DNA from: Nitrospirota bacterium
Lineage (GTDB): Bacteria > Nitrospirota > Thermodesulfovibrionia > UBA6902
Direction of reading: 5' to 3'
Assembly (NCBI GenBank): GCA_016234115.1
Contig: JACRHD010000019.1
Location: 1 to 64,000, forward strand
Length of the DNA stretch: 64,000 bases
Below, in pieces: positions 48,782 through 63,770 of this stretch; within the stretch, counting starts at the first letter, position 1; each line of letters opens with the position of its first letter. The notes beneath the pieces were generated by a model, which searched no databases, was not told the DNA's origin, and saw nothing but the letters and a program-made list of their open reading frames with translations. The position numbers were made by a program, and so were the translations under genes.

Positions 48782-49618
48782 ATGAACAACATTAAAATTA
48801 CAAAAAAGTCCGGGATGCTGGAGGACTTCAACTCGCGCAAATTAATGGAGTCCCTTCTGCGGTCAGGCGCTGAGCAGGACCAGGCTGAAGAGATTCTCGA
48901 CAGAATAACCGCTGAGATAACTCCCTATGTGAGCACAAAAAAGATTTACAGGCTCGCTTACAAATATCTCAGGCAGTTTAACAGGATGTCCTGTCTTAAA
49001 TATTCATTAAAGAGGGGACTGTCCAGGCTCGGGCCGTCGGGATATCCCTTTGAAGAATATTTCGGCGGGTTAATGAGATATTACGGTTATCATGTCGATG
49101 TTGGAATTATCCTCGAAGGGAAATGCGTCAGCCACGAAGTCGACGTCTTTGCGGTCAGCGACCGGGAGGTATTGGCTGTCGAGTGCAAGTACCGCAACAA
49201 CTCCGACACCGCCCCCCCTGATGTAAAGACAGCCCTTTACGTCCAGGCGCGGTTTGAGGACCTCAGGCCCGTCATTAAGGCCCGTTATCCCGGCAAGGCC
49301 TTTTCAGGCTGGCTCGTGACCAATACCCGCTTTACCTCCGACGCCATCCGTTACGCGGAATGCGCCGGACTCAGGATCAGGAGCTGGCGGTACCCGGAAA
49401 ACAACAGCCTGGAGAAGATGATCGAAGACAAGAAACTGTACCCGGTCACGATATTATCCTCTCTCAACTCCTTCCAGATCAGGAAATTATCCAAACAGCA
49501 ATTGGTCCTCATGAAGGACCTTGCACAGGCGGACGTTAGGGATATCAGGAGGCTGCTGTCCATTTCCGAGAACAGGGCCGCTGAACTGATACAGCAGGCG
49601 AGTGAGCTGTGCTTCTGA
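48782..49618 (+). CDS. ATP-cone domain protein with Mrr-like nuclease domain
   Basis: Residues about 5-90 form an ATP-cone (KSGMLEDFNSRKLMESLLRSG, DRITAEITPYVSTKKIYRLAY), the nucleotide-sensing module of ribonucleotide reductases and NrdR. Residues about 95-200 form a PD-(D/E)xK nuclease of the Mrr type: GYPFEEYFGGLMRYYGYHVDVG, then HEVDVFAVSDREVLAVECKYR with the D and ExK residues, and FSGWLVTNTRFTSDAIRYAECAGL. A helical tail follows (about 215-278). It may cut DNA in a nucleotide-dependent way. No methyltransferase is next to it. GCAACATTTGTT precedes the ATG and no good ribosome-binding site is visible. Confidence 0.85.
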   Translation: MNNIKITKKSGMLEDFNSRKLMESLLRSGAEQDQAEEILDRITAEITPYVSTKKIYRLAYKYLRQFNRMSCLKYSLKRGLSRLGPSGYPFEEYFGGLMRYYGYHVDVGIILEGKCVSHEVDVFAVSDREVLAVECKYRNNSDTAPPDVKTALYVQARFEDLRPVIKARYPGKAFSGWLVTNTRFTSDAIRYAECAGLRIRSWRYPENNSLEKMIEDKKLYPVTILSSLNSFQIRKLSKQQLVLMKDLAQADVRDIRRLLSISENRAAELIQQASELCF

Positions 49619-49825
49619 CACACATATTCATTACAAGCTTTACCTGCCTTTCAAGCGTTTATACTGAAAAAGATGACCGCGCTCAGCGGCTGGTTTCCAG
49701 CTCTGCTTCGGAAGATACGATTATTCGCCCCTTAATCTTTTTTTTATAATTGCCGATTAAGAGTTAGTGAAAATGAAAATTCCCTGTCGCAAACGGGCAG
49801 GGTATCAAGGGTTTAATTTGAAAAA

Positions 49826-49860: not shown

Positions 49861-50772
49861 ATGCTGATAACTAATTTTAAAGAAAAAGTTTACAACTGTA
49901 TTGAGTTTCTCCCGCCGATTCCGGACATAATGAAGGAGCTTAATGAATTGCTGCAGAAAAAAGACTGTGATCTGCGGGACATAAGCGGAGTTATAGAAAA
50001 AGATCCCTCATTAAGCCTGAACGTTTTAAAGATCGCAAATTCGGCTTTCTACGGCTTGCCTTATGAGGTCTCCTCCATGGAGCGGGCTGTAGCGCTTATA
50101 GGCCTTCAGGAAGTAGCGTCTCTCTGTATGGTATGCAACATTACCGATATACTTAAACCGGAGCCGGGCGTTATGACAATGGATATAAAATCCTTCTGGG
50201 AACATTCAGTAGCCACAGGAGTGATAGCAAAGATATTCTGTAAAGAATTCAATATCAGGACGCAGGAAAATCTTTATCTGGCAGGTCTTATCCATGATGT
50301 GGGCAAAATAATTATAGACAGGTTTTCCCATATCGCATACGACGGCATTATTAAAGCAACGCATGATGAGAATATAGCTCTTATTGAGGCGGAGAAACGT
50401 ATTATAGGGGAGTCTCATGACAGGGTCGGCGGGTGGCTTATAGAAAAATGGGAGCTCCCGAAGGTGTTTTTTGAGGTGGCTGCGCATCACCATTCATTAA
50501 TGGACGCTTCAGACGGAAACAGGCGGGCAGTGGCTATCATTTCTTTATCAAATCATATTGCGCGTATAAAGGGTTTCGGCTTTGGAGGAGATATGAGGGG
50601 AATTATATTGCAGGAGACTGATGCCTTCAGGATAATCAATGCAGAATATCCTCATCTCCGGGACCAGGATATAGCGAGGTTTGTCATGGACCTGGACAGG
50701 GCGGACAATGAGATCGCAGGATTGGAAAGGATGATGAATGCAGGCAGCAGGCCAAAAACTTACAGACGCTGA
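49861..50772 (+). CDS. HDOD-domain signalling protein
   Basis: The 303-residue protein is an HDOD domain (about 10-210): FLPPIPDIMKELNELLQ, PSLSLNVLKIANSAFYG, SMERAVALIGLQEVASLC, and GLIHDVGKIIIDRF with HD residues retained. HDOD proteins are found with chemotaxis and c-di-GMP proteins and often work by binding. GESHDRVGGWLIEKWELP is the late conserved part. Its 3' end overlaps cheR by 35 bases, so it belongs to the chemosensory operon. Confidence 0.9.
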   Translation: MLITNFKEKVYNCIEFLPPIPDIMKELNELLQKKDCDLRDISGVIEKDPSLSLNVLKIANSAFYGLPYEVSSMERAVALIGLQEVASLCMVCNITDILKPEPGVMTMDIKSFWEHSVATGVIAKIFCKEFNIRTQENLYLAGLIHDVGKIIIDRFSHIAYDGIIKATHDENIALIEAEKRIIGESHDRVGGWLIEKWELPKVFFEVAAHHHSLMDASDGNRRAVAIISLSNHIARIKGFGFGGDMRGIILQETDAFRIINAEYPHLRDQDIARFVMDLDRADNEIAGLERMMNAGSRPKTYRR

Positions 50773-51586
50773 ATTTAACGCGTTAAGAGATTACATCTAT
50801 AATAAAAGCGGTATTTTTTTCACCGAAAGAAACCGCTTCCAGCTTGAGACAAAAATAAAAGAAAGACTGGACAAGACAGGGTGCAGGGATGCGTTTGAAT
50901 ATGTAAAGCATCTTGAGGATTATAAAGCAGGCGCTGCCGAGCTTGATGAACTGTTTAATACCGTCACTGTTAATGAAACCAGTTTTTTCAGGGACAAGTC
51001 TTTTATTTCAGCGCTTGAGAAAAACGTCATCCCGGAATTAGTACAAAAGTACGACATGCCGGGATTTAAACAGATCAGGGTCTGGAGCGCAGCTTCTTCA
51101 TCCGGCGAAGAGGCATACACGATAGCCATACTGCTGTCTGAATGTCTTAAGGACGCGATCAGCAGATGGCGCATCAGGATCCATGCGACAGACATCGACG
51201 ATAACGTTCTCAAGAGGTGTAAGGACGGGAAATACAAAAGTAGCGCATTACGCAACGTCAGTCCCTCTTTAATTGAAAAATATTTTGACCGGTCCGATGC
51301 CGACACCTTCTCTGTAAAGAATAATTTAAAAGAAATGGTAGTTCCTGCAAAATGCAATCTGATCAATCCTGCCTCATGCAGCGCCTTCTCCGGGGTGGAC
51401 CTCATTTTGATCCGCAACGTTCTGATATATTTTGATGCCGAATCAAAGAAAAAAGTCCTGAAAATGTGCTACGAAAACTTAAGAAACGGCGGATATATGT
51501 TTTTAGGACATTCAGAAACCATTTTCGGCGTTACCACCGGTTTTAAGATGGTAAGTTTCGTGAATGCTACCGCATACAGGAAGTAG
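50738..51586 (+). CDS. cheR: Chemotaxis protein methyltransferase CheR
   Basis: CheR methylates glutamates of chemoreceptors with S-adenosylmethionine. An N-terminal helical domain (LTDAEFNALRDYIYNKSGIFFTERNRFQLETKI) is followed by the catalytic domain with NETSFFRD, VWSAASSSGEEAYTIA (SAM binding), HATDIDDNVLKRC, DLILIRNVLIYFD and MFLGHSETI. Length 282 is normal. No receptor-tethering extension is seen. The receptor encoded at 54796 is the likely substrate. Confidence 0.95.
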   Translation: MQAAGQKLTDAEFNALRDYIYNKSGIFFTERNRFQLETKIKERLDKTGCRDAFEYVKHLEDYKAGAAELDELFNTVTVNETSFFRDKSFISALEKNVIPELVQKYDMPGFKQIRVWSAASSSGEEAYTIAILLSECLKDAISRWRIRIHATDIDDNVLKRCKDGKYKSSALRNVSPSLIEKYFDRSDADTFSVKNNLKEMVVPAKCNLINPASCSAFSGVDLILIRNVLIYFDAESKKKVLKMCYENLRNGGYMFLGHSETIFGVTTGFKMVSFVNATAYRK

Positions 51587-51717
51587 TTTTGTAAGTACCC
51601 CCCTGCATTTTCAGAAAGCCTTCCGTCGTCTCAAAGATTATAAATCCTCATTTTTTCATACCTGAAAGTTAAGTTCTTATGAAGGCCTGCCGATATGTAG
51701 GATTATAAGATTCATTC

Positions 51718-51735
51718 GGGGAGGATACGAAAATC
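51718..51735 (+). promoter_or_regulatory. Ribosome-binding site in front of an ATC codon
   Basis: GGGGAGG at 51718-51724 is followed, after eight bases, by ATC at 51733, in frame with the CheW domain. No ATG, GTG or TTG lies in frame within usable distance. Confidence 0.55.
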
Positions 51736-52485
51736 AAGGCTGTAACATTCAGGATAGGCGCTGAACACTTCAGTGTGGATATAGGCCATATAAAGGAGAT
51801 AAAGCCTTTTTCAGAGTTGAAAAACACTTATGTCCCGAACTCCGGGGCCTGGCTGAAAGGGCTCGTAAATCTGCGGGGCAATCTGGTGCCTGTGATAGAT
51901 TTGGGCATTATCTTTAATATCCGGGACAAGGCTGATAAAGGGCATAATGTAATGATCCTTTCTGTAAAGGGGAGAATTATAGGCATACTCGTTGATGCCA
52001 TTGGAACAATTATGGACATCGGTGAGGATGAGCTCGAGAAGCCTCCGACAACGCTTTCGAAGGATGAGACAAAATACATCGCAGGTGTTAAGCGGCTTGA
52101 GAATGCGCTGCTGGTCCATCTTGCGCCGGAGCATCTGATAACTATGGAGGAAAGCAGCCAGAGTTACCGGGAAAAAAGAAGACATACGAGGAAGACAGTA
52201 AATTTATTGGCGATGTATACGGTTTCATACAATGGCGCGGACTATCAATGGCTGCCCTGCGTTGTGCTGGATATGTCCCCCGGAGGACTCAGGATAAAGC
52301 TGAATGAACATCTTAATATCGGCACAACTGTCAGGTTAAATATTAAAGACGATCTGGAAATCGAGGGGACAGTTGTAAGTTCACGTAATGAGGAGGACAA
52401 ATCGAGTGAGCATGCGGGCATAAAATTCAATGATCTTCAGGAAGTAATCGAGGGGAAAATTATAAAGTTGCTGAGGGACAAATAA
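51733..52485 (+). CDS. CheW-PilZ fusion protein
   Basis: CheW couples chemoreceptors to the CheA kinase and PilZ binds cyclic di-GMP. Residues 1-140 are CheW: KAVTFRIGAEHFSVDIGHIKEI, GLVNLRGNLVPVIDLG, and GIIVDAIG-type strand order. Residues about 150-250 are PilZ with both ligand motifs: RRHTR (RxxxR) and DMSPGG (D/NxSxxG). I start at ATC 51733: it follows GGGGAGG at the right distance and keeps the first CheW strands, which the next GTG (51775) would remove. The next gene, cheA, begins right after the stop. The fusion would let c-di-GMP act on the receptor-kinase array. Confidence 0.82.
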   Translation: MKAVTFRIGAEHFSVDIGHIKEIKPFSELKNTYVPNSGAWLKGLVNLRGNLVPVIDLGIIFNIRDKADKGHNVMILSVKGRIIGILVDAIGTIMDIGEDELEKPPTTLSKDETKYIAGVKRLENALLVHLAPEHLITMEESSQSYREKRRHTRKTVNLLAMYTVSYNGADYQWLPCVVLDMSPGGLRIKLNEHLNIGTTVRLNIKDDLEIEGTVVSSRNEEDKSSEHAGIKFNDLQEVIEGKIIKLLRDK

Positions 52486-54732
52486 ATGGCGCAGGATGAA
52501 ATTGTACAGGGAAATGCAGGGGACATATTACCCGACTTTGTCACCGAAGATATTTTAAAGGATTTTCTGGCAGAGGCCGGCGAAGGCATACAGGGATTGG
52601 AGTTTGATTTTATAGCCCTTGAGAAAAACCCTGATGATGCGGAGCTTATCAATAAAATCTTTCGTGTGATTCATTCAGTCAAGGGCGCCTCGTCCTTCAT
52701 CGGCTTCAGGAATCTGGAAAGCATTTCACATAAAACAGAAGATGTGCTCAACAAGCTCAGAAAATCAGAATTAACCCTGACCCCGTGCATAATGGATATA
52801 TTGCTGAGCGCTGTTGACTCAATTAAGCTGATTTTAAAAGATATTGAGGAAAACAGGAGTGACACACATATATCTACCGGCCCGGTTATTGAAAAGCTTG
52901 TCAACATAGTGACGGAATGCAGGCAGGCGAAAGAATTCGAACTGGAACAGAGTACTCACCCCGGCGCTGTTCAGCCTTCAGAGCCGGAGAAAACTCCCCG
53001 GTTCACTGCTCCGAAAGTCGCTATCCAGGCGCCTGCCAGAGAAGACATACGATCGGTAAGGATCAATGTTGAGAGACTGGATTATCTCTTCAATCTTGTA
53101 GGGGAGCTGGTACTCTCCAGAAACAGGCATATACAGCTCCAGAGACACCTCTGGCAGAAGTACCCTAACGATGAAACCATAAGCCTGGACCTGCTTGAGG
53201 CCGGCAGTTATCTGAACCGGCTGACATCCGACATACAATTGGCAGTCATGAAGACGAGGATGATACCCATATCGTCCATCTTTAATAAATTCCAGAGGAT
53301 CGTCAGGGACCTGGCAAAGAGTCTTAAAAAAGAAGTCGAGATTTACATATCAGGCGAGTACACGGAAATTGATAAAAACATCATTGAAGGCATAGGCGAC
53401 CCGCTGACGCACATTGTCAGAAATTCTGTAGACCATGGACTGGAGATGCCGGATGAAAGAGAGGCGGCGGGGAAGCCGCGGGCAGGGTACATTGAATTAA
53501 AATCCTATTATGAGGGCAATTACGTGATTATTTCCGTCAAGGACGACGGCAAAGGCATTGACCTGGAAGCAGTGCGGAAAAAGGCCGTTGAAAAGGGCAT
53601 GATCACGGCCTCAGACGCAGAGAAGCTTTCAAAGAATACCCTCCTTGGCTTTATATTCGCCCCAGGGTTTTCAACGGCCAAAAATATTACCGCCACATCC
53701 GGCAGGGGGGTCGGCATGGATGTCGTCAGGACCAATATAGAAAAATTACGGGGCCAGATTATTCTGGATTCTGATCTGGGCGCCGGCACCGAACTGAAGT
53801 TGAAGATACCTCTTACCCTGGCCATCCTTGAAACTCTTGTAGTGACTGTATCCGGGCAGAAATATGCCATACCGCTTCCAAATGTTACAGAAACGCACAG
53901 GACCGGATACGGGCAGATAGAAATGGTAAGAGGCAAACGGGTCTTCAGGATGAGGGACGAATTGATGCCGCTTGTCCTGCTGTCGGAGGTGTTTAATCTT
54001 CCGCACAAATACGATGATGCTGCAGAAGTCACCATTGTGGTCCTGAAGCACGGGATGCTCAAGATGGGACTGGTAGTCGATAAAACCTCGGGACAGGAAG
54101 AGGTCGTTATCAAGCCTCTCGATTGCCTTGACGGGATATCCGAGCCGAAGGGCCTGTCAGGCGCGACTATTTTGGGAGACGGTTCGATTACTTTCATACT
54201 GGACGTAGACGAATTGATGAAACTGACAAAGGCGGGGGAGCGGCAGTTGGACGCTGAAAATCCGGGCGTAAGGGAAGCAGGCCGGGTTGAAACAGACACA
54301 ATAAACGTTGTCCTGGTGGACAATCTGGATAAAGAACAATATGCGGTCCCCGCAAGAAGGATTAAAGAAATAGAGATCATAAAGAAAACGGATATTGAGG
54401 AGATAGGCGGCAGAATGATGATAAAGTACAGGGGGAAAATAATTTCGTTGACTACAATCCCCTGCATAACCGGCGTGCCTGATCATGGTGCATTTGAAAA
54501 TTACTACATGGTGATATTGACCGGTCAGGAAGCGCTGGAGTCGCGGGCAGATACCGATGGCGAGGTTGGGCTTCTCGTCGGGCGTCTTCTCGGAATCAAG
54601 AAAACAACAGAATCGTCTTTTGACAGGAACAGGAAGGCCCTGAGCGGGGTCAGGGGCTCCACTATTTTCAACGGCAGGACGACATTCCTTCTCGATATTG
54701 AAGAGGTTGTGGCGTCAACAGCACTGAGTTAA
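52486..54732 (+). CDS. cheA: Chemotaxis histidine kinase CheA, with two CheW-like domains
   Basis: The 748-residue kinase starts with an HPt domain (about 22-130, phosphoacceptor H63 in VIHSVKGASSF). After a linker with no clear P2 domain come the dimerisation helices (VRINVERLDYLFNLVGELVLSRNRH), the ATPase domain (DPLTHIVRNSVDHGLE, DDGKGID, TSGRGVGMDVV), and CheW-like P5 (about 440-580). A second, divergent CheW-like domain follows (about 600-745, NVVLVDNLDKEQYAVPARRIKEIEII). CheA normally phosphorylates CheY and CheB, neither of which is in the window. It starts at the stop codon of the CheW-PilZ gene. Confidence 0.94.
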   Translation: MAQDEIVQGNAGDILPDFVTEDILKDFLAEAGEGIQGLEFDFIALEKNPDDAELINKIFRVIHSVKGASSFIGFRNLESISHKTEDVLNKLRKSELTLTPCIMDILLSAVDSIKLILKDIEENRSDTHISTGPVIEKLVNIVTECRQAKEFELEQSTHPGAVQPSEPEKTPRFTAPKVAIQAPAREDIRSVRINVERLDYLFNLVGELVLSRNRHIQLQRHLWQKYPNDETISLDLLEAGSYLNRLTSDIQLAVMKTRMIPISSIFNKFQRIVRDLAKSLKKEVEIYISGEYTEIDKNIIEGIGDPLTHIVRNSVDHGLEMPDEREAAGKPRAGYIELKSYYEGNYVIISVKDDGKGIDLEAVRKKAVEKGMITASDAEKLSKNTLLGFIFAPGFSTAKNITATSGRGVGMDVVRTNIEKLRGQIILDSDLGAGTELKLKIPLTLAILETLVVTVSGQKYAIPLPNVTETHRTGYGQIEMVRGKRVFRMRDELMPLVLLSEVFNLPHKYDDAAEVTIVVLKHGMLKMGLVVDKTSGQEEVVIKPLDCLDGISEPKGLSGATILGDGSITFILDVDELMKLTKAGERQLDAENPGVREAGRVETDTINVVLVDNLDKEQYAVPARRIKEIEIIKKTDIEEIGGRMMIKYRGKIISLTTIPCITGVPDHGAFENYYMVILTGQEALESRADTDGEVGLLVGRLLGIKKTTESSFDRNRKALSGVRGSTIFNGRTTFLLDIEEVVASTALS

Positions 54733-54795
54733 TGAACAGTAATTACAGATTAAAAAAATAGCAGGAAAAACAAACTTCAGAACGGGAGGATAAAC

Positions 54796-56373
54796 ATGAA
54801 AATAAGAAATCTCAAATTGAAAACCCAGTTGTTGTCCGGTTTCACTGCGATAATTCTGATTATGGTCGCCATGGTCGTTACGACTGTATATTTATTCAAC
54901 AGTGTCGACAGCAAAGGCACAAGCGCCAAGACGGTCGCGGATGAAAGCGTGCCTTACGCGTTGCTTGCCGAAAAGATGGCGTTTTACATAGTCCAGGTCC
55001 AGCAGTTTCTGACTGATGTCTCGGTAACTAATGACCGTGAAGGTTACAAGGATGCCGAAGACGCCGCAAAAGGTTTCAGAGAGGGGATCGGCAGGTTCAA
55101 GACCGTCTTCAAGGCAAAAAATGATTTCCAGTCTCTGGACAAGATAGAAAAGCTGGACACCGCGTTTAACAAATATTATGAAAGCGGCAAAAGGATGACG
55201 AATGCATACCTTGCACAGGGGCAGCAGGCGGGCAACGGGATGATGGAGGAATTCGACAGTTCGGCCCTCGCCCTGACAGCGGGGATGAATGAATTTGAAA
55301 GGCTAAAGGTTGATGAGGCGCAGCAGGGAATACGGAATGTCGAAGCAGCGACACGGCAGGTGCAGAAGGTTTCCGTTGTCCTCGGGACCGTGGCGCTTAT
55401 AATAAGCGCATTAATTGCGGTCATCATACTTCGCGGCGTGTCCCGTCCCATGGAAGAATTGACCTCCAGCATTGCAAAAGTTGCGGATGGCGATCTCCGC
55501 GTTAAAATCAATGTCTCCGGCAGTGACGAAATAAACAGGTTTTCGAATGAAATAAATAAAATGAACCTGAATATGAGCAGGGCAATAAACCAGATAGGCA
55601 ACACTGTCGCAGAGCTTTCCGGCTACGGCTCGACCCTGGCCTCAAAAAGCACACAGACAGGGGAAAGCGCGCAGGACCAGACAATGAAGGCCACCGCTGT
55701 GGCAACGGCGGCCGAGGAGATGACCTCTACAGTCACAGAGATCGCAAATTCATCATCCAATGCAAGCGAACTGTCGAAGCAGGCCTACAGGATCGTTCAG
55801 GACAGCTCGGGAATCATAAAAGAGACGGCCGCCATAATCAACGCCCAGGGGGAGAAGAGCAGGAAAATAGGAGAGGTAATAAATTTTATCAACGACATAG
55901 CCAACAAAACTGATCTGCTTGCGGTAAACGCCGCTATAGAGGCTGCCAATGCCGGCGAGCACGGAAAGGGTTTTGCAGTCGTAGCAGAAGAGGTCAGAAA
56001 GCTTGCCGAAAGGACCTCAAAGGCAAGCGCGGAAATTACGGCAATTATAGAAGATATTCAGGATGGATCAAAACAGGCTGTTGTATCAATGGATAAAGTT
56101 AACAGTTCATTTGACGACGTTATGTCAAATGTTGAGAAGGTCAACGATCTCATAACGCAGATTGCGACGGCGGTCGAGGAGCAGTCGGCTGCGTCAGACG
56201 AGATCGCTTCAAATATACAGATGGTCGCCCAGATTGCGCAGGGCACTTTTATTTCATCCGAGGAGACAATTAAAATTGTGACGGATATTGTCGATATATC
56301 AGAAAGGTTAAGAAATAATACAGCGGTTTTTAAAACAGACCTCTCTGATGCAGACTCAGCCCGACCTGTATAA
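54796..56373 (+). CDS. Methyl-accepting chemotaxis protein
   Basis: The 525-residue receptor has a membrane helix (about 11-33), a four-helix-bundle periplasmic sensor (about 40-185), a second membrane helix (about 192-213, [23 protein letters not shown]), HAMP (about 215-268), and a signalling domain with [57 protein letters not shown] precedes the ATG. It lies downstream of cheA and should feed this array. The ligand is unknown. Confidence 0.94.
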
Positions 56374-57842: not shown

Positions 57843-57945
57843 TACGCCGATAACCGAGAATTACAAATCATGGGAGCTGCTTCTGTGAACTTGCGCCGTT
57901 TATATGTTAAAATGGTGAGCATACTTGACAGTAAGGAGAAACCGT

Positions 57946-59283
57946 TTGGGAAAGACCGTAGCGGTCAGTTTTGAAGGAGATTCGGTAAAGATAGTTCACG
58001 CCTCCCTCAGAGGCAAAGGTCTTACAGTCAATAAAGCGGAATCAATCCCTGAAAGTGATTTTGATAATTATCTCCGCCGGGAAAAAGCCCGGGAGTTCAT
58101 CGTGACCGGCGAATTCAGGGAGTCCTACCATGACGTTATCACGACCCCCGTGGTCAAGGATCAGTATCTTAAAAAGGTCGTGGAAGCGGAGATACGGAAG
58201 GTCCTTGTGCAGAAGGAGTTTTCCTTTGTCTATTCCCCCGTGGGCGAGAAGGTAATTGACAACAGGAAAGCGCAGGAGGTCTTCTATTACGCTGTCCCTA
58301 AAGACACGGTCAGGGACATCGTGAACAGGTTTCATGATAACGGAAAGACGGTGAAGGCGCTCTATTCTGCCGTCTTTTCAGCGGCGGCCCTGATTGATAA
58401 AGGCGTTCACGGTGAAGCCCACCTGGGCATCTTCAGCGCCGGAAAGGCGCGGGCCGCCTTTTTTAAAAAAGAGGGCAAGATATATTTCCTGAGAAATTAT
58501 GAATCTTATGAAGCGCAGCTCTCCGACTTCGATATCCAGAATATAAACATGACGATCAGTTTCTGTTTTCAGAGCCTCAGGCTCAATCCCGCATCTGTTT
58601 TCATAATGGGTCCCATGTCTGAATCATTGCAGCTCAACTCCATGTCGACCGCTCCCCTGGCGTGCCTTGTCAGGCCTGAACATATTAAATGCAGCAGGGA
58701 GATGTTCAGTGGGTTTACGCTGCCCATCGCCTCATTCCTTACGTCCGGGGCGTCGGATATCCTCGGTATGGAATTCGGGGGAATTTACCGGCTGAAGAAG
58801 TTTATGGCTTATGCATCGATGGTCTTTATCGCGCTCACGCTTATATGCGCGGGCGCCATATCATATGAATTGAAAAATGTGGCCGACAAAAGAGAGCGCA
58901 TAAGACAGGCAAAAGACAGCGGCTCGGATGTGGAAAGGATTTTCGCGGATTATGCATCGAGGCAGGAACGGATCAGCCGGTATATGCCGGCAGTGGAATT
59001 TCTGAACAGGCCGTCGCCCGATCTCCGGGGACTGCTGATTTCTCTGGGAGGCTCGGATTTCAGGGAATTGACGCTCAACGGAATCGAGGTCTCCTACAGC
59101 GAGGGGAAAAGCACCGTCTCCCTCAGGGGCGTTTCCGGGGCGGACACATATAGTGCGCTGCAGGATTCACTGGATAATATGGAAAAAGAACTGGCCAAAA
59201 TCGGGAATATGAAAATTACAGACCGTGCGGTCGAGCTTAAAGACAAAACATTTTCAATAGAGCTGGGCCCAAAGACGGAATGA
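57946..59283 (+). CDS. MshI/PilM-PilN-like pilus assembly protein
   Basis: The 445-residue protein has a cytoplasmic actin-like PilM domain (about 1-280: KTVAVSFEGDSVKIVHASL, VVKDQYLKKVVEAEIRKVL, FFKKEGKIYFLRNYES) and a PilN-like part with one membrane helix (about 290-310, FMAYASMVFIALTLICAGAI) and periplasmic coiled coil plus small domain. It corresponds to the fused MshI/GspL type. I start at TTG 57946 because AAGGAG lies seven bases upstream; an earlier TTG at 57925 is less likely. It is the first gene of the pilus locus. Confidence 0.8.
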   Translation: MGKTVAVSFEGDSVKIVHASLRGKGLTVNKAESIPESDFDNYLRREKAREFIVTGEFRESYHDVITTPVVKDQYLKKVVEAEIRKVLVQKEFSFVYSPVGEKVIDNRKAQEVFYYAVPKDTVRDIVNRFHDNGKTVKALYSAVFSAAALIDKGVHGEAHLGIFSAGKARAAFFKKEGKIYFLRNYESYEAQLSDFDIQNINMTISFCFQSLRLNPASVFIMGPMSESLQLNSMSTAPLACLVRPEHIKCSREMFSGFTLPIASFLTSGASDILGMEFGGIYRLKKFMAYASMVFIALTLICAGAISYELKNVADKRERIRQAKDSGSDVERIFADYASRQERISRYMPAVEFLNRPSPDLRGLLISLGGSDFRELTLNGIEVSYSEGKSTVSLRGVSGADTYSALQDSLDNMEKELAKIGNMKITDRAVELKDKTFSIELGPKTE

Positions 59284-59296
59284 TGCAGGGGAAGAT

Positions 59297-59833
59297 TTGC
59301 AGATAAATTACTTTAAATACCTGAAAAGAAGTTTTCCGGCTTATTTAATATGCGGGACGCTGTTAGGATTAGCGGTTTTTTCAGCGGCGATGATTCACCG
59401 GTATGACAACTACCTGACGGCTTCTCTGGAGGCGATGAACAATATCAACCGTAAAAAAGAAGATATCAAGATGGAGATAGACCGGATAGACGAGTTAATA
59501 GAATATTTTCAAACCGGCTTTGACGTCAGGGAAGGCAGGATTGACCCGGAAATGCTCATTCTTCACGCGCTCGATAAAATGAAGGCGCGTCTTGATAACG
59601 CTGAAATAACTGTCTCCAGATTTGAAGACGTTGAGGGAGAGACGAGGCTTCCCGTCGAGATCAGGCTTCCTGCAGACAATTACGGGACGGCCATTGACTG
59701 CGCCGGCTTTATCGAATCGTTCAGGCTGCCTGACTTCAGGATAAAGCATTTTCTCCTTTCCAAAGGAGATGACGGCAGGGCAGTAGTAAGTATTCAGGGA
59801 AGCTTTGTGGCGCCGAGTATACAGGGGGGCTAA
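59297..59833 (+). CDS. MshJ/PilO-like inner-membrane protein
   Basis: The 178-residue protein has a short cytoplasmic start, one membrane helix (about 13-32, AYLICGTLLGLAVFSAAMI), a coiled coil (about 38-70), and a small periplasmic domain. Size, topology and position after the PilM-PilN-like gene match MshJ/PilO. Sequence similarity is too low to say more. The start is TTG 59297, preceded by GGGGAAG. Confidence 0.65.
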   Translation: MQINYFKYLKRSFPAYLICGTLLGLAVFSAAMIHRYDNYLTASLEAMNNINRKKEDIKMEIDRIDELIEYFQTGFDVREGRIDPEMLILHALDKMKARLDNAEITVSRFEDVEGETRLPVEIRLPADNYGTAIDCAGFIESFRLPDFRIKHFLLSKGDDGRAVVSIQGSFVAPSIQGG

Positions 59834-59865
59834 TGGTATGTTTGAACAAAAAATTTCATAAGTTG

Positions 59866-59940
59866 TCATTCCCGCAGTCAGTAAGCGGGAATCCGGACAG
59901 CGAGAAGTGGATGCCCGATCAAGAACTTCGGGCATGACGT
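59866..59940. repeat. 'GTCATTCCCGC ... GCGGGAAT' and 'ATGCCCGATC ... TTCGGGCATGAC' palindromes
   Basis: Two hairpins side by side: ATTCCCGCAGTCAGTAAGCGGGAAT and ATGCCCGATCAAGAACTTCGGGCAT. Related to 48605-48766. Confidence 0.75.
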
Positions 59941-59950
59941 AATCCTAACT

Positions 59951-60394
59951 ATGGATAACAGGATAAAGATTTTGATTGCCTTTCCATTCGTTTTCGTTAT
60001 AATACTTTTTATCGCGGCGAAGAACGTTCCTCTGAAGCTGAGGCTTACAGCGGCTGAAGAAGGGATACTGACGTTTGCGCCCGCCGAACTTGCGGTAGAG
60101 CAAAGGCCCGAGGTCCCAGTATCCCGGGAAATAAAAAGCCCTCTCCGTTTCGGCGTCCCGCAGTCAGGCGCAGTCAGGGCAGCAGATGAGGATATAACTC
60201 CGGAAACGGACTATGAAGATAACGCCCTTTCACTTATCGTTGTCAGCGGCAACAGGAAGATGGCGATCATCAGAGGGATCATTGTCAGGGAGGGGGACAA
60301 TATCGACGGTATGAGGATAGTCAGGATAGAGCCTGAGAAGGTCCTGGTTAAAGGCAGGACCGAAAGATGGATATACCCGGAGAAAACGAGATGA
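59951..60394 (+). CDS. MshK/PilP-like pilus periplasmic protein
   Basis: The 147-residue protein has an N-terminal membrane helix (KILIAFPFVFVIILFIAA), a variable linker, and a C-terminal domain ALSLIVVSGNRKMAIIRGIIVREGD followed by RIEPEKVLVKGRTERWIYP, which is the beta-strand domain of PilP/GspC/MshK proteins that touch the secretin. Its stop codon overlaps the next gene by four bases (ATGA). Confidence 0.7.
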   Translation: MDNRIKILIAFPFVFVIILFIAAKNVPLKLRLTAAEEGILTFAPAELAVEQRPEVPVSREIKSPLRFGVPQSGAVRAADEDITPETDYEDNALSLIVVSGNRKMAIIRGIIVREGDNIDGMRIVRIEPEKVLVKGRTERWIYPEKTR

Positions 60395-61959
60395 AAAAAT
60401 ATTATGTGTTTAATTTCAGCGCTCAGCACTCAGTGCTCAGTGCTCTGTGCTTTGTGCTTTGTGTTCTGTTTCTGATCTCATGCTCATCTTTACGCCGTCC
60501 TGAAGCGCAACCGGCAAAAGAAGTAAAAGACCAGCCTGAGCTCCTCAGGCAGGCCCCGGTCCCGCCTGAGGCCCCTGGACCGGCCATGCCGGAATTTGCT
60601 CCTGTCAATGAAGCGAGCTCCCCGCTGCAGACCCGGACTGTGTCCGTCTCGGCGAGAAACACGGCCCTGCGGGAGGTGCTCTTTACCATTTCTGAGACGG
60701 CCGGACTCAACCTCGTGATGGAGCGCGGCGTCGATGCGGAGCAGCCTGTCACAATGACACTGAAAAATATGAGCGTGGCGGACGCGCTCAATACCGTCCT
60801 GGATTCGGCGGATTATTTTTATTCTGTGAAAGACAATATACTCACTGTAAAGGCCGTGGAAACGGAGATATTCGAAATCGGCCATCCCAACGTGGTGCAG
60901 GAATATAAGATCAAGACCGGCGGGGACATCCTCAGCGGCACGTCCTCGGCTTCCGGGGCGACAAACGCGGTAAGCGGCGACGTATCGATACAGTCGTCGT
61001 CCGACGCGACGTCATTTAATTTCTGGGCCGCGATAGAAAAATCTCTCGACGCCCTTCTGAAGTCACAGGGCGGGGAGCAGGGGAAGAAGGTCCAGCCGGG
61101 ATATACTGTAAACAGGATGGCGGGCACTGTCATGGTCACGGCGTCAAAAAAAGACCTCCAGAAGGTGCGGTCTTATATTACAAACCTCAAGACCTCCCTG
61201 GGCAGACAGGTGCTCATTGAAGCGCGCATCGTGGAGGTCCAGTTGTCCGAGGGGCTGAAATACGGAATCGACTGGACCGCGGTCGTTAAATGGTTCAGCA
61301 TCGACTCTACGAGCTTCGGCCCGGCGAACTTTTCAAATGTCGTAGACGGCAACGGCCCGAACTTCCTGTTCACCATTACTGAAAATGATAATTTCTCCCT
61401 CCTCCTGCGGGCGCTGCAGGAGCAGGGCAATGTCCGGACCTTGTCAAACCCGAGAATTAATATAATGAACGGTCAGACGGCCCTGCTGAGCGTGGGAAGA
61501 AACACGAGCTTCATTTCGAGGGTCGAGACCACCACGACCTCTACGCAGGGGTCCGCCCCGTCGACCACCTTCACCGTTGAGACCAACAGTATACTGTCCG
61601 GGGTCATGTTCGGCATAGTCCCGTTCATCAACAGCAGCGGGGAGATAGCATTGACCATAACGCCGATAATCACGAACCTCGTGCAGCTCGAGGAGCAGAC
61701 AATCGGGGCCGGGACCTCCTCCTCCGTTCAGATAAAGCTTCCCACCGTCGATCTGAGGGAAATGACTACTATGGTAAAGGTGCCGGACGGTCAGATGATC
61801 GTCATAGGCGGGCTGATCGACAACAGAGAAAGGTTGAATGAAGACAGGGTGCCTTTGCTTGGAGATATCCCGGTCCTGGGACATGCATTCAGGAGCGTCA
61901 GCAAGACCGAAGAGAAGACAGAGCTCGTGATTATGCTGATACCGAGGATCGTAAGTTAA
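60391..61959 (+). CDS. mshL: Outer-membrane secretin, MshL/PilQ family
   Basis: The 522-residue lipoprotein forms the outer-membrane pore for the pilus. The signal peptide ends in the lipobox FLISC. The N-domains (about 80-150, VSVSARNTALREVLFTISETAGL, TLKNMSVADALNTVLDSADY) are followed by a secretin domain (about 260-520) with RQVLIEARIVEVQLSEGLKYGIDW, VRTLSNPRINIMNGQTALLSVG, VPDGQMIVIGGLID and DRVPLLGDIPVLGHAF. GDILSGTSSASGATNAVSG resembles MshL. The signal peptide is encoded by a copy of the 'CAGCACTCAGTGCTCAGTGC' repeat family. Start ATG 60391 overlaps the previous stop. Confidence 0.9.
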   Translation: MKKYYVFNFSAQHSVLSALCFVLCVLFLISCSSLRRPEAQPAKEVKDQPELLRQAPVPPEAPGPAMPEFAPVNEASSPLQTRTVSVSARNTALREVLFTISETAGLNLVMERGVDAEQPVTMTLKNMSVADALNTVLDSADYFYSVKDNILTVKAVETEIFEIGHPNVVQEYKIKTGGDILSGTSSASGATNAVSGDVSIQSSSDATSFNFWAAIEKSLDALLKSQGGEQGKKVQPGYTVNRMAGTVMVTASKKDLQKVRSYITNLKTSLGRQVLIEARIVEVQLSEGLKYGIDWTAVVKWFSIDSTSFGPANFSNVVDGNGPNFLFTITENDNFSLLLRALQEQGNVRTLSNPRINIMNGQTALLSVGRNTSFISRVETTTTSTQGSAPSTTFTVETNSILSGVMFGIVPFINSSGEIALTITPIITNLVQLEEQTIGAGTSSSVQIKLPTVDLREMTTMVKVPDGQMIVIGGLIDNRERLNEDRVPLLGDIPVLGHAFRSVSKTEEKTELVIMLIPRIVS

Positions 61960-62120: not shown

Positions 62121-63770
62121 TTGAAGCTCGGCGACATTCTCATAGAAAAAGGGCTGCTTACAAAGGACAGGCTGGAGCTTGCCCTCGCCCATCAGAAAGT
62201 CACAGGCTCTCTATTAGGAGAAACGCTGATAAAGCTCGGGTTCGTTTCTTCCGCGGAGATCGCCAGAACGCTTGCCGGCCAGTCCGGGGTGCCGTTTATA
62301 GATCTGGCGGAATATAATATCGCGGAAGACGCTATCCGCCTGGTCCCGAAAGAGGTCGCGGAAAAGACCGGGTTTATCCCGCTCCGCCTGACGGACGGGG
62401 CGATCGAGATAGGGGTCACCAATCCCTCGAACATCCAGGCGATAGACACGGCCTCACGAATCACCGGCAGGAAACCCGTAATCTTCATGATCGACAATAC
62501 GGGGTTTTACGAGACCCTGGAGAGGTCCTATTTCTTTCTCGAAAACCCCATCCAGCAGAACATCCTTGCGACAGTCAACGAAATAAAGTCCTCTCCGGCA
62601 GTCCCGGCAGCCATGGTCGCCGAGCTTGCCCAGAACCTCATCATGGAGGGAATCAGGAGGAAGGCGACGGATATCCATATCAGTCCCGCAGCGGACACGC
62701 TGAATGTATTTTACCGGGTGGACGGCGTGCTGCAATACGGCTTCTGCATCCCCAGGGCCGCGCAGGCGGGCATTGTGTCGAGGATAAAGGTCATGTCGAT
62801 GCTGGACATCTCGGAGCAGAGGCTGCCCCAGGACGGGTCCTTCTCAATGGCGTTTCTGAATACAAAATATGAGATGCGCATATCGACGACGCCGACCATT
62901 TACGGCGAGAACATAGTGCTAAGGGTGCTTGCGGGCGCCGGGCAGATGATCAGGATCGAGTCCCTCGGCTTCGATCCGAACAACACAAATCAGTTGCGCG
63001 CGCTGTTTCAGAAGCCCTATGGAATAATCCTGATTACAGGGCCTACGGGCAGCGGTAAGACAACAACGCTTTATGCGGCGCTGAGGGAAGTAAACCTTAT
63101 TGAAAGGAACGTGCTGACGGTTGAAGACCCTGTCGAATACAAGCTGAGTTTTGTAAAGCAGACTTCCGTAAATCTAAAAGCCGGCTATGATTTCGCCCTT
63201 GCCGGCAGGACGTTCATGAGACAGGACCCCGACGTAATGCTTCTGGGAGAGATAAGAGACGAGGAGACCGCGAAGATCGCGGTAAGGGCCTCCATCACCG
63301 GGCACCTTGTCCTGTCCACACTGCATACAAACGACGCCGTCACGTCCATTCCCAGGCTGCTCGATTTCAAGATCGACAAATTTCTGCTCTCCACGTCCAT
63401 CCTCGCGGTCATTGCGCAGAGGCTTGTAAGAAAGCTGTGCAGTAACTGCAAGGAAGAATATCCGGTCTCCGAAGAGGAACTGACATTGTTGAATGTGACC
63501 GGCAGGGGACATGACGTCTCCCTCAAAACAGCGTTCAGGTCAAAGGGCTGCGCCATGTGCAATCATACCGGCTATAGGGGCAGGACCGTTGTCGGAGAGA
63601 TAATGGTCGTCAATGACGAGATCAGGGAATATATAGCTTCAGGGGCCTCTCTGATGAAGGTCAGGGAGGCGTCGTTAAAAAACGGCATGGTCCCCCTGAA
63701 GATCGCCGGCATCCGGAAAATCGAACAGGAAATTACGAGCATAGATGAGATCGTGAGGCTGATTGACTGA
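62121..63770 (+). CDS. mshE: Pilus extension ATPase MshE/PilB with c-di-GMP-binding N-terminus
   Basis: The 549-residue ATPase powers pilus assembly. The N-terminus has two MshEN motifs, KLGDILIEKGLLTKDRLELA followed by LAHQ (2-25), and LGETLIKLGFVSSAEIARTL with AGQ (32-54). These are the known c-di-GMP-binding repeats. The ATPase domain has GPTGSGKTTTLYA (Walker A), the Asp box, LLGEIRDEETAKIA (Walker B) and the His box GHLVLSTLHTNDA. Two cysteine pairs (CSNC, CAMC) bind zinc. The start is TTG 62121 after GAGGAAG. C-di-GMP should promote pilus assembly. Confidence 0.93.
   Translation: MKLGDILIEKGLLTKDRLELALAHQKVTGSLLGETLIKLGFVSSAEIARTLAGQSGVPFIDLAEYNIAEDAIRLVPKEVAEKTGFIPLRLTDGAIEIGVTNPSNIQAIDTASRITGRKPVIFMIDNTGFYETLERSYFFLENPIQQNILATVNEIKSSPAVPAAMVAELAQNLIMEGIRRKATDIHISPAADTLNVFYRVDGVLQYGFCIPRAAQAGIVSRIKVMSMLDISEQRLPQDGSFSMAFLNTKYEMRISTTPTIYGENIVLRVLAGAGQMIRIESLGFDPNNTNQLRALFQKPYGIILITGPTGSGKTTTLYAALREVNLIERNVLTVEDPVEYKLSFVKQTSVNLKAGYDFALAGRTFMRQDPDVMLLGEIRDEETAKIAVRASITGHLVLSTLHTNDAVTSIPRLLDFKIDKFLLSTSILAVIAQRLVRKLCSNCKEEYPVSEEELTLLNVTGRGHDVSLKTAFRSKGCAMCNHTGYRGRTVVGEIMVVNDEIREYIASGASLMKVREASLKNGMVPLKIAGIRKIEQEITSIDEIVRLID

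What the first reader, a model, noticed from the sequence alone, without database searches (positions are those of the whole stretch)
49861..56373. Chemosensory operon with a CheW-PilZ fusion and no CheY, CheB or CheD
HDOD, CheR, CheW-PilZ, CheA and a receptor are tightly packed. The PilZ part has both c-di-GMP motifs. Placing a c-di-GMP receptor on the coupling protein itself would let the messenger act directly on the receptor-kinase array. CheA has an extra CheW-like domain and no clear P2, and its phosphorylation target is not encoded here. The nearby pilus locus with a c-di-GMP-binding ATPase is a natural output.
Basis: partly seen in the sequence, partly recalled or inferred. Interest (0 to 1): 0.6.

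Follow-up and report, generated by a model that had tools for sequence, protein, structure and literature searches.

The report
Chemosensory coupling protein carrying c-di-GMP receptor
A small group of Nitrospirota bacteria has a separate chemical-sensing array whose connector protein (CheW) carries a sensor domain for the messenger c-di-GMP; the set has its own modified receptors and appears to be switched on with the flagella, so the messenger could tune a whole sensing array directly.

Summary
In detail: HDOD, CheR, CheW-PilZ, CheA (Hpt-P3-P4-CheW-CheW, no P2, no REC) and one receptor, with no CheY/CheB in the cluster. The fusion is real. Orthologues (about 60% identical) occur in four other Nitrospirota genomes of the same family, and all keep RxxxR and DxSxxG. 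It is rare: 5 of 37 family genomes, none in other families of a phylum sample.

The conserved unit is cheW-pilZ, cheA and receptor(s). The HDOD-cheR genes and the neighbouring pilus locus are not conserved.

Best reading: a dedicated, insulated array co-expressed with flagella, in which c-di-GMP acts on the coupling protein. Flagellar output is favoured over pili but not shown; kinase control by c-di-GMP is inferred. New variant of a known kind (PilZ on receptors or CheR partners).

The parts
49733..49759 (+). sigma-28-like promoter TAATCTTT-N11-GCCGATTA upstream of HDOD-cheR (13/16 to consensus)
   Evidence: second-best of 63 ORF upstream regions in the window, but not seen upstream of HDOD in G004 or G009
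49861..50772 (+). HDOD-domain protein
   Evidence: Pfam PF08668 8.2e-57; present upstream in G004 and G009, absent in G031 and G034
50738..51586 (+). CheR methyltransferase
   Evidence: Pfam CheR 4.8e-57 and CheR_N; absent from the G031/G034 operons
51669..51696 (+). sigma-28-like promoter TTAAGTTC-N12-GCCGATAT; site conserved in five of five orthologous loci
   Evidence: 0-2 of 400 shuffles reach the score in each; best of 63 upstream regions in the window
51718..51724 (+). ribosome-binding site GGGGAGG, 8 nt before the AUC start
51733..52485 (+). CheW-PilZ fusion, AUC start; CheW part 51733-52152, PilZ part 52171-52482
52177..52191 (+). PilZ motif RxxxR (RRHTR), in the inter-domain junction
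   Evidence: invariant R149 and R153 in five orthologues; low-confidence linker in the model
52270..52287 (+). PilZ motif DxSxxG (DMSPGG)
   Evidence: invariant D180, S182, G184, G185
52486..54732 (+). CheA: Hpt 52549-52818, dimerisation 53050-53256, ATPase 53398-53817, CheW-like domains 53833-54222 and 54322-54717; no P2, no REC
   Evidence: relatives G031/G034 have two Hpt domains and a C-terminal REC
54796..56373 (+). 36-heptad-class transmembrane MCP
   Evidence: ungapped match to E. coli Tsr; 14+14 residues shorter than six other receptors of the genome
55849..56061 (+). MCP hairpin tip with [24 protein letters not shown] signature
   Evidence: found only in the seven receptors of the five CheW-PilZ operons among 230 class genomes

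Best explanation
This is a dedicated accessory chemosensory array expressed with the flagellar late genes. Its receptor(s), CheW-PilZ and double-CheW CheA form a private set: receptor tips and the CheW part have changed together, so they probably do not mix with the cell's three other systems. Because the only CheW in the unit carries a PilZ domain, c-di-GMP can bind at the CheW/PilZ junction (RxxxR in the linker, DxSxxG in the barrel). There it would fold the PilZ domain against the CheW, altering CheW contacts with receptor tips or CheA, so that CheA output depends on both the receptor stimulus and the c-di-GMP level. Output most likely reaches the flagellar motor through a CheY encoded elsewhere; in the relatives G031 and G034 a REC domain on CheA is an additional phosphate acceptor. 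Shown by sequence: gene set, fusion, motif conservation, sigma-28-like site, tip and CheW co-divergence. Inferred: c-di-GMP binding, effect on the kinase, flagellar output, private array.
For: Fusion and domains. PilZ motifs invariant although the PilZ part is only 37-44% identical between clades, against 68-74% for CheW. Model: CheW pLDDT about 73-94, PilZ about 62-83, linker 140-153 below 50; Foldseek hits E. coli CheW 1.7e-11, Alg44 PilZ 4e-4, YcgR 3e-4. Sigma-28-like site in 5/5 loci although the sequences around it have diverged. Stringent pattern 16 hits against 1 in the reversed control, including flagellins and two of the cheW-pilZ genes. In the own genome the looser pattern precedes fliC, motA, the flagellar che cluster and an MCP. 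FliA and flagellins present. Unique receptor tip in exactly the seven operon receptors (93-100% identity; next best 72%). R388/E385 inter-dimer ionic lock and the role of tip residues in CheA/CheW binding: PMC8144572, PMC4692393. Fixed CheW differences including a 2-residue insertion next to the region matching E. coli CheW V36/E38 (those positions from memory). Precedent: PilZ on receptors alters taxis and binds c-di-GMP via RxxxR: PMC6454048, PMC6406031.
Against: No binding or activity data; all genomes are metagenome assemblies. The loose sigma-28 pattern as a whole is not enriched in the own genome (30 hits against 35 controls), and the own site is one of the weaker ones (13/16). Sigma-28-like sites also precede two pilin-like genes, rhodanese and multihaem cytochrome genes, so this promoter does not by itself exclude a pilus output. 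No CheY is linked, and the CheA lacks P2. Relative orientation of the two domains in the model is not reliable (pTM 0.55).
Confidence: 0.5

Rival explanations
1. The PilZ domain does not gate the kinase but acts as a tether: c-di-GMP-bound PilZ, sited on every CheW, docks the array to a motor or envelope partner (as YcgR/MotI do with the motor), placing the array or sequestering c-di-GMP.
For: Foldseek hits for the PilZ part include YcgR and MotI; the junction is flexible; sigma-28-like sites shared with motA and fliC.
Against: Fixed changes lie in the CheW segment and the receptor tips, which points to altered array contacts rather than only an added tether; no partner identified.
Confidence: 0.2
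2. One reading: the array controls type IV pili through the nearby pilus locus and its c-di-GMP-binding ATPase.
For: pilMNOPQ-type genes at 57925-61959 and an MshEN-T2SSE ATPase at 62121-63770 lie next door; an MshEN ATPase also lies beyond typA in G004; sigma-28-like sites precede two pilin-like genes in the own genome.
Against: No pilus genes beside the operon in G009, G031, G034; no PilG/PilH-like CheY in the cluster.
Confidence: 0.17
3. Ordinary accessory chemotaxis set in which the PilZ extension is vestigial or structural.
For: PilZ part evolves faster than CheW.
Against: Every defining residue of RxxxR and DxSxxG is invariant in five diverged orthologues, and none lost the domain.
Confidence: 0.1

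Closest known systems
PilZ-bearing chemoreceptors (Tlp1 and Aer of Azospirillum brasilense, Cbp1 of Azorhizobium)
   Same: c-di-GMP receptor domain built into an array component; RxxxR motif; link with flagellar taxis (PMC6406031, PMC6454048)
   Different: there PilZ sits on one receptor species and tunes that receptor; here it sits on the coupling protein, so it would act on the whole array; the MCPs here have no PilZ
MapZ (PilZ adaptor of CheR1 in Pseudomonas)
   Same: PilZ domain joins c-di-GMP to the chemosensory core; Foldseek finds MapZ structures 5xly and 5y4r
   Different: MapZ is a separate protein that inhibits CheR; here PilZ is covalently part of CheW
CheV (CheW-REC)
   Same: coupling protein with a C-terminal input domain (from general knowledge)
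   Different: input is c-di-GMP binding rather than phosphorylation; C-terminal domain is PilZ by profile and fold
F5-type chemosensory class
   Same: CheA with an additional CheW domain (PMC10746217)
   Different: gene order is W-A-M without CheB, and the receptors are 36-heptad rather than the 38H stated for F5

Membership tests
CheW coupling proteins | CheW domain over its full length, with the NLRG core and the CheW fold | tested here: met
   PF01584 positions 2-137 of 138, E 1e-27; R48/G49 invariant with 21 other CheWs; Foldseek E. coli CheW 1.7e-11, TM 0.83-0.85 by target
PilZ c-di-GMP receptors | RxxxR and D/NxSxxG motifs in a PilZ barrel | tested here: met
   PF07238 E 2.8e-14; both motifs invariant in five orthologues; PilZ structures are the top non-CheW/CheA hits
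PilZ c-di-GMP receptors | measured binding of c-di-GMP | not testable with these tools
   needs ITC or thermal shift on purified protein
F5 chemosensory class | additional CheW domain in CheA | tested here: met
   two CheW stretches in CheA of all five operons
F5 chemosensory class | gene order A-W...B-R | tested here: not met
   order is (HDOD-R)-W-A-M, no CheB
F5 chemosensory class | 38H receptors | tested here: not met
   operon receptors align without gaps to Tsr, the 36H type, and are 14+14 residues shorter than the longer class
Type IV pilus (Pil-Chp) chemosensory systems | linked PilG/PilH-type CheYs and conserved linkage to pil genes | tested here: not met
   no stand-alone REC gene in the cluster; pilM-Q linkage only in this genome
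sigma-28 (FliA) regulon | TAAAGTTT-N11-GCCGATAA promoter used by FliA | tested here: inconclusive
   site conserved in 5/5 and FliA present, but binding and transcription untested

The most novel reading that the evidence does not exclude
A complete chemosensory array, insulated from the other arrays of the cell by co-changed receptor tips and CheW, has every coupling-protein position equipped with a c-di-GMP receptor, so the second messenger allosterically sets the gain or on/off state of the whole kinase array rather than of one receptor; its supply may also be throttled by AUU/AUC initiation.
Probability: 0.35. Interest if true: 0.78.

Novelty: new variant of a known kind. Interest (0 to 1): 0.62.

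Why it matters
c-di-GMP control of swimming is known at the motor (YcgR), at CheR (MapZ) and on single receptors (Tlp1, Cbp1). Putting the receptor on CheW would be a very direct way to let the sessile/motile messenger set the sensitivity of a whole array, and would make a clean testable case of array-level gating. The perfect co-occurrence of CheW-PilZ with a unique receptor tip also gives a natural example of how one cell may keep parallel arrays apart.

Tried and rejected
The loose sigma-28 pattern alone is not enriched in the own genome, so I relied on conservation across loci, shuffles and a stricter pattern. The HDOD-cheR promoter-like site is not conserved in G004 or G009, so I do not claim it. 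A first AlphaFold model from five sequences was poor for CheW; adding other CheWs fixed that. An alignment that also held stand-alone PilZ proteins misplaced them on CheW and was dropped. Considered and rejected: assembly artefact (five separate genomes carry the fusion), degenerate PilZ (motifs invariant), F5 membership (gene order and receptor class fail).

Full report
What is there. CheA runs Hpt, dimerisation, ATPase, CheW, CheW; between Hpt (to residue 111) and the dimerisation domain (from 189) there is only a short linker, so P2 is absent, and there is no REC. The PilZ part scores 2.8e-14 to Pfam PilZ and carries RRHTR and DMSPGG. The window lies in a 3.5 Mb Nitrospirota assembly of 69 contigs (97% complete) with three further che clusters (C51, C68:119-131 kb, C49), many receiver domains, FliA and two flagellins.

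Conservation. Full-length fusions occur in four other genomes of the same family: G004 and G009 (same genus), G031 and G034 (another genus), at about 60% identity. Only 5 of 37 family genomes have it, and a sample of 396 phylum genomes gave no fusion outside the family. Between clades the CheW part is 68-74% identical and the PilZ part 37-44%, yet R149, R153, D180, S182, G184 and G185 are invariant. That is the pattern expected of a ligand site under selection.

The conserved unit is cheW-pilZ, cheA and one or two receptors. HDOD and cheR precede it only in the window's genus; in G031 and G034 the neighbours upstream are unrelated genes, and CheA there has a second Hpt and a C-terminal REC. 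The receptors differ in their sensory parts: the window's has a periplasmic domain, G004 and G009 show a CxxCH haem-binding motif there, and one G031 receptor has hardly any periplasmic part. So inputs are exchanged while the CheW-PilZ/CheA core stays. The pilus genes next door are not conserved neighbours.

Start codon. The mechanical ORF begins at 51775, but CheW homology begins earlier. In the five loci the aligned first codon is AUC, AUU, AUG, AUU, AUU; no ATG, GTG or TTG lies upstream in frame before a stop; and a purine-rich ribosome-binding site sits some 8 nt before it. The model's first beta strand covers residues 2-8 with pLDDT about 93. In the four loci without AUG the next canonical starts fall at different places (codons 8-29) and would remove strand 1 wholly or in part. 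Initiation at AUU/AUC is thus the best reading; it is rare and usually inefficient (established for infC, from general knowledge) and may keep the amount of this protein low.

Promoter. Upstream of cheW-pilZ each locus has a sigma-28-like site: TTAAGTTC-N12-GCCGATAT (window), TCAAGTTT-N11-ACCGATAT (G004), TTAAGTTT-N11-GCCGATAA (G009), TAAAGTAT-N11-ACCGATAA (G034), TAAAGTAT-N11-GCCGATAC (G031), scoring 13-15 of 16; 0-2 of 400 shuffles per locus reach the score, although the last 60 bases before the start are only 25-38% identical without gaps. A strict pattern finds 16 sites in the four relatives against 1 for the reversed control, 14 of them between genes, before flagellins, both G031/G034 cheW-pilZ genes, a HAMP protein, and also rhodanese and multihaem cytochrome genes. 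In the window's genome looser sites precede flagellin, motA, the HEAT gene that opens the flagellar che cluster, a PilJ-type MCP, a CheY-like gene and two pilin-like genes. In the window the two best-scoring upstream regions of 63 are those of cheW-pilZ and of HDOD. Co-expression with flagella is therefore likely; exclusive flagellar output is not shown.

A private array. The operon receptors align without gaps to Tsr (36-heptad type), while six other receptors of the genome are 14 residues longer in each arm and two are 7 shorter in each. All operon receptors share the tip [24 protein letters not shown], where the others have QTNLLALNAAIEAARAGE or close to it. In Tsr numbering this is N376D, L380V and R388N. 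R388 forms an inter-dimer ionic lock with E385 (PMC8144572), and trimer-contact residues are nearly invariant and probably also serve CheA/CheW binding (PMC4692393). A search of 230 class genomes gave exactly seven receptors with 93-100% identity to this tip, all in the five CheW-PilZ operons; the next best anywhere is 72%. The CheW part has 24 residues fixed in all five and absent from 21 other CheWs at the same place, including a 2-residue insertion (K30, N31). Receptor tip and coupling protein have therefore diverged together, which suggests an array that does not mix with the others.

Mechanism. The model (26 sequences) shows a well-predicted CheW fold, a PilZ barrel, and a low-confidence junction 140-153 that holds the RxxxR motif; the best structural matches are E. 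coli CheW and c-di-GMP-bound PilZ domains. In known PilZ proteins such as YcgR and VCA0042 the N-terminal RxxxR segment closes over c-di-GMP and draws the neighbouring domain in (general knowledge). By analogy, c-di-GMP would pull PilZ against CheW and change its contacts in the receptor/CheA lattice. That step, the phosphate target and the behaviour are inferred.

Compared with what is known. PilZ domains on receptors (Tlp1, Aer, Cbp1) and on a CheR partner (MapZ) are published. I found no mention of a CheW-PilZ protein in the open-access library searched, which does not cover subscription journals. I rate it a new variant of a known kind.

Noticed in passing
51733-51735; L026-L029: cheW-pilZ starts at AUC or AUU in four of five orthologues, with no canonical in-frame start upstream; annotation pipelines will truncate the first CheW strand.
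   Followed up: yes
L074, L134, L139 (rhodanese); L130, L133, L140 (multihaem cytochromes); L067, L070 (pilin-like): Sigma-28-like promoter sites precede a secreted rhodanese gene in three genomes, multihaem c-type cytochrome genes in relatives and two pilin-like genes in the own genome, suggesting a FliA regulon wider than flagella in this family.
   Followed up: partly
L055:4957-6546, L056:4413-5921: The operon MCPs of G004 and G009 have a periplasmic CxxCH haem-binding motif (NCLGCHNV), so the array may sense redox or a haem ligand there; Pfam has no name for the domain.
   Followed up: no
L058:9745-13005, L057:11139-14291: In G031 and G034 the CheA of this operon has two Hpt domains and a C-terminal receiver, unlike the window's genus.
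   Followed up: yes
48782-49618: ATP-cone plus Mrr-type nuclease (AF1548-like C-terminal) gene just upstream of the cluster; apparently unrelated.
   Followed up: no
62121-63770: PilB/GspE-type ATPase with an MshEN domain beside pilMNOPQ-type genes.
   Followed up: partly
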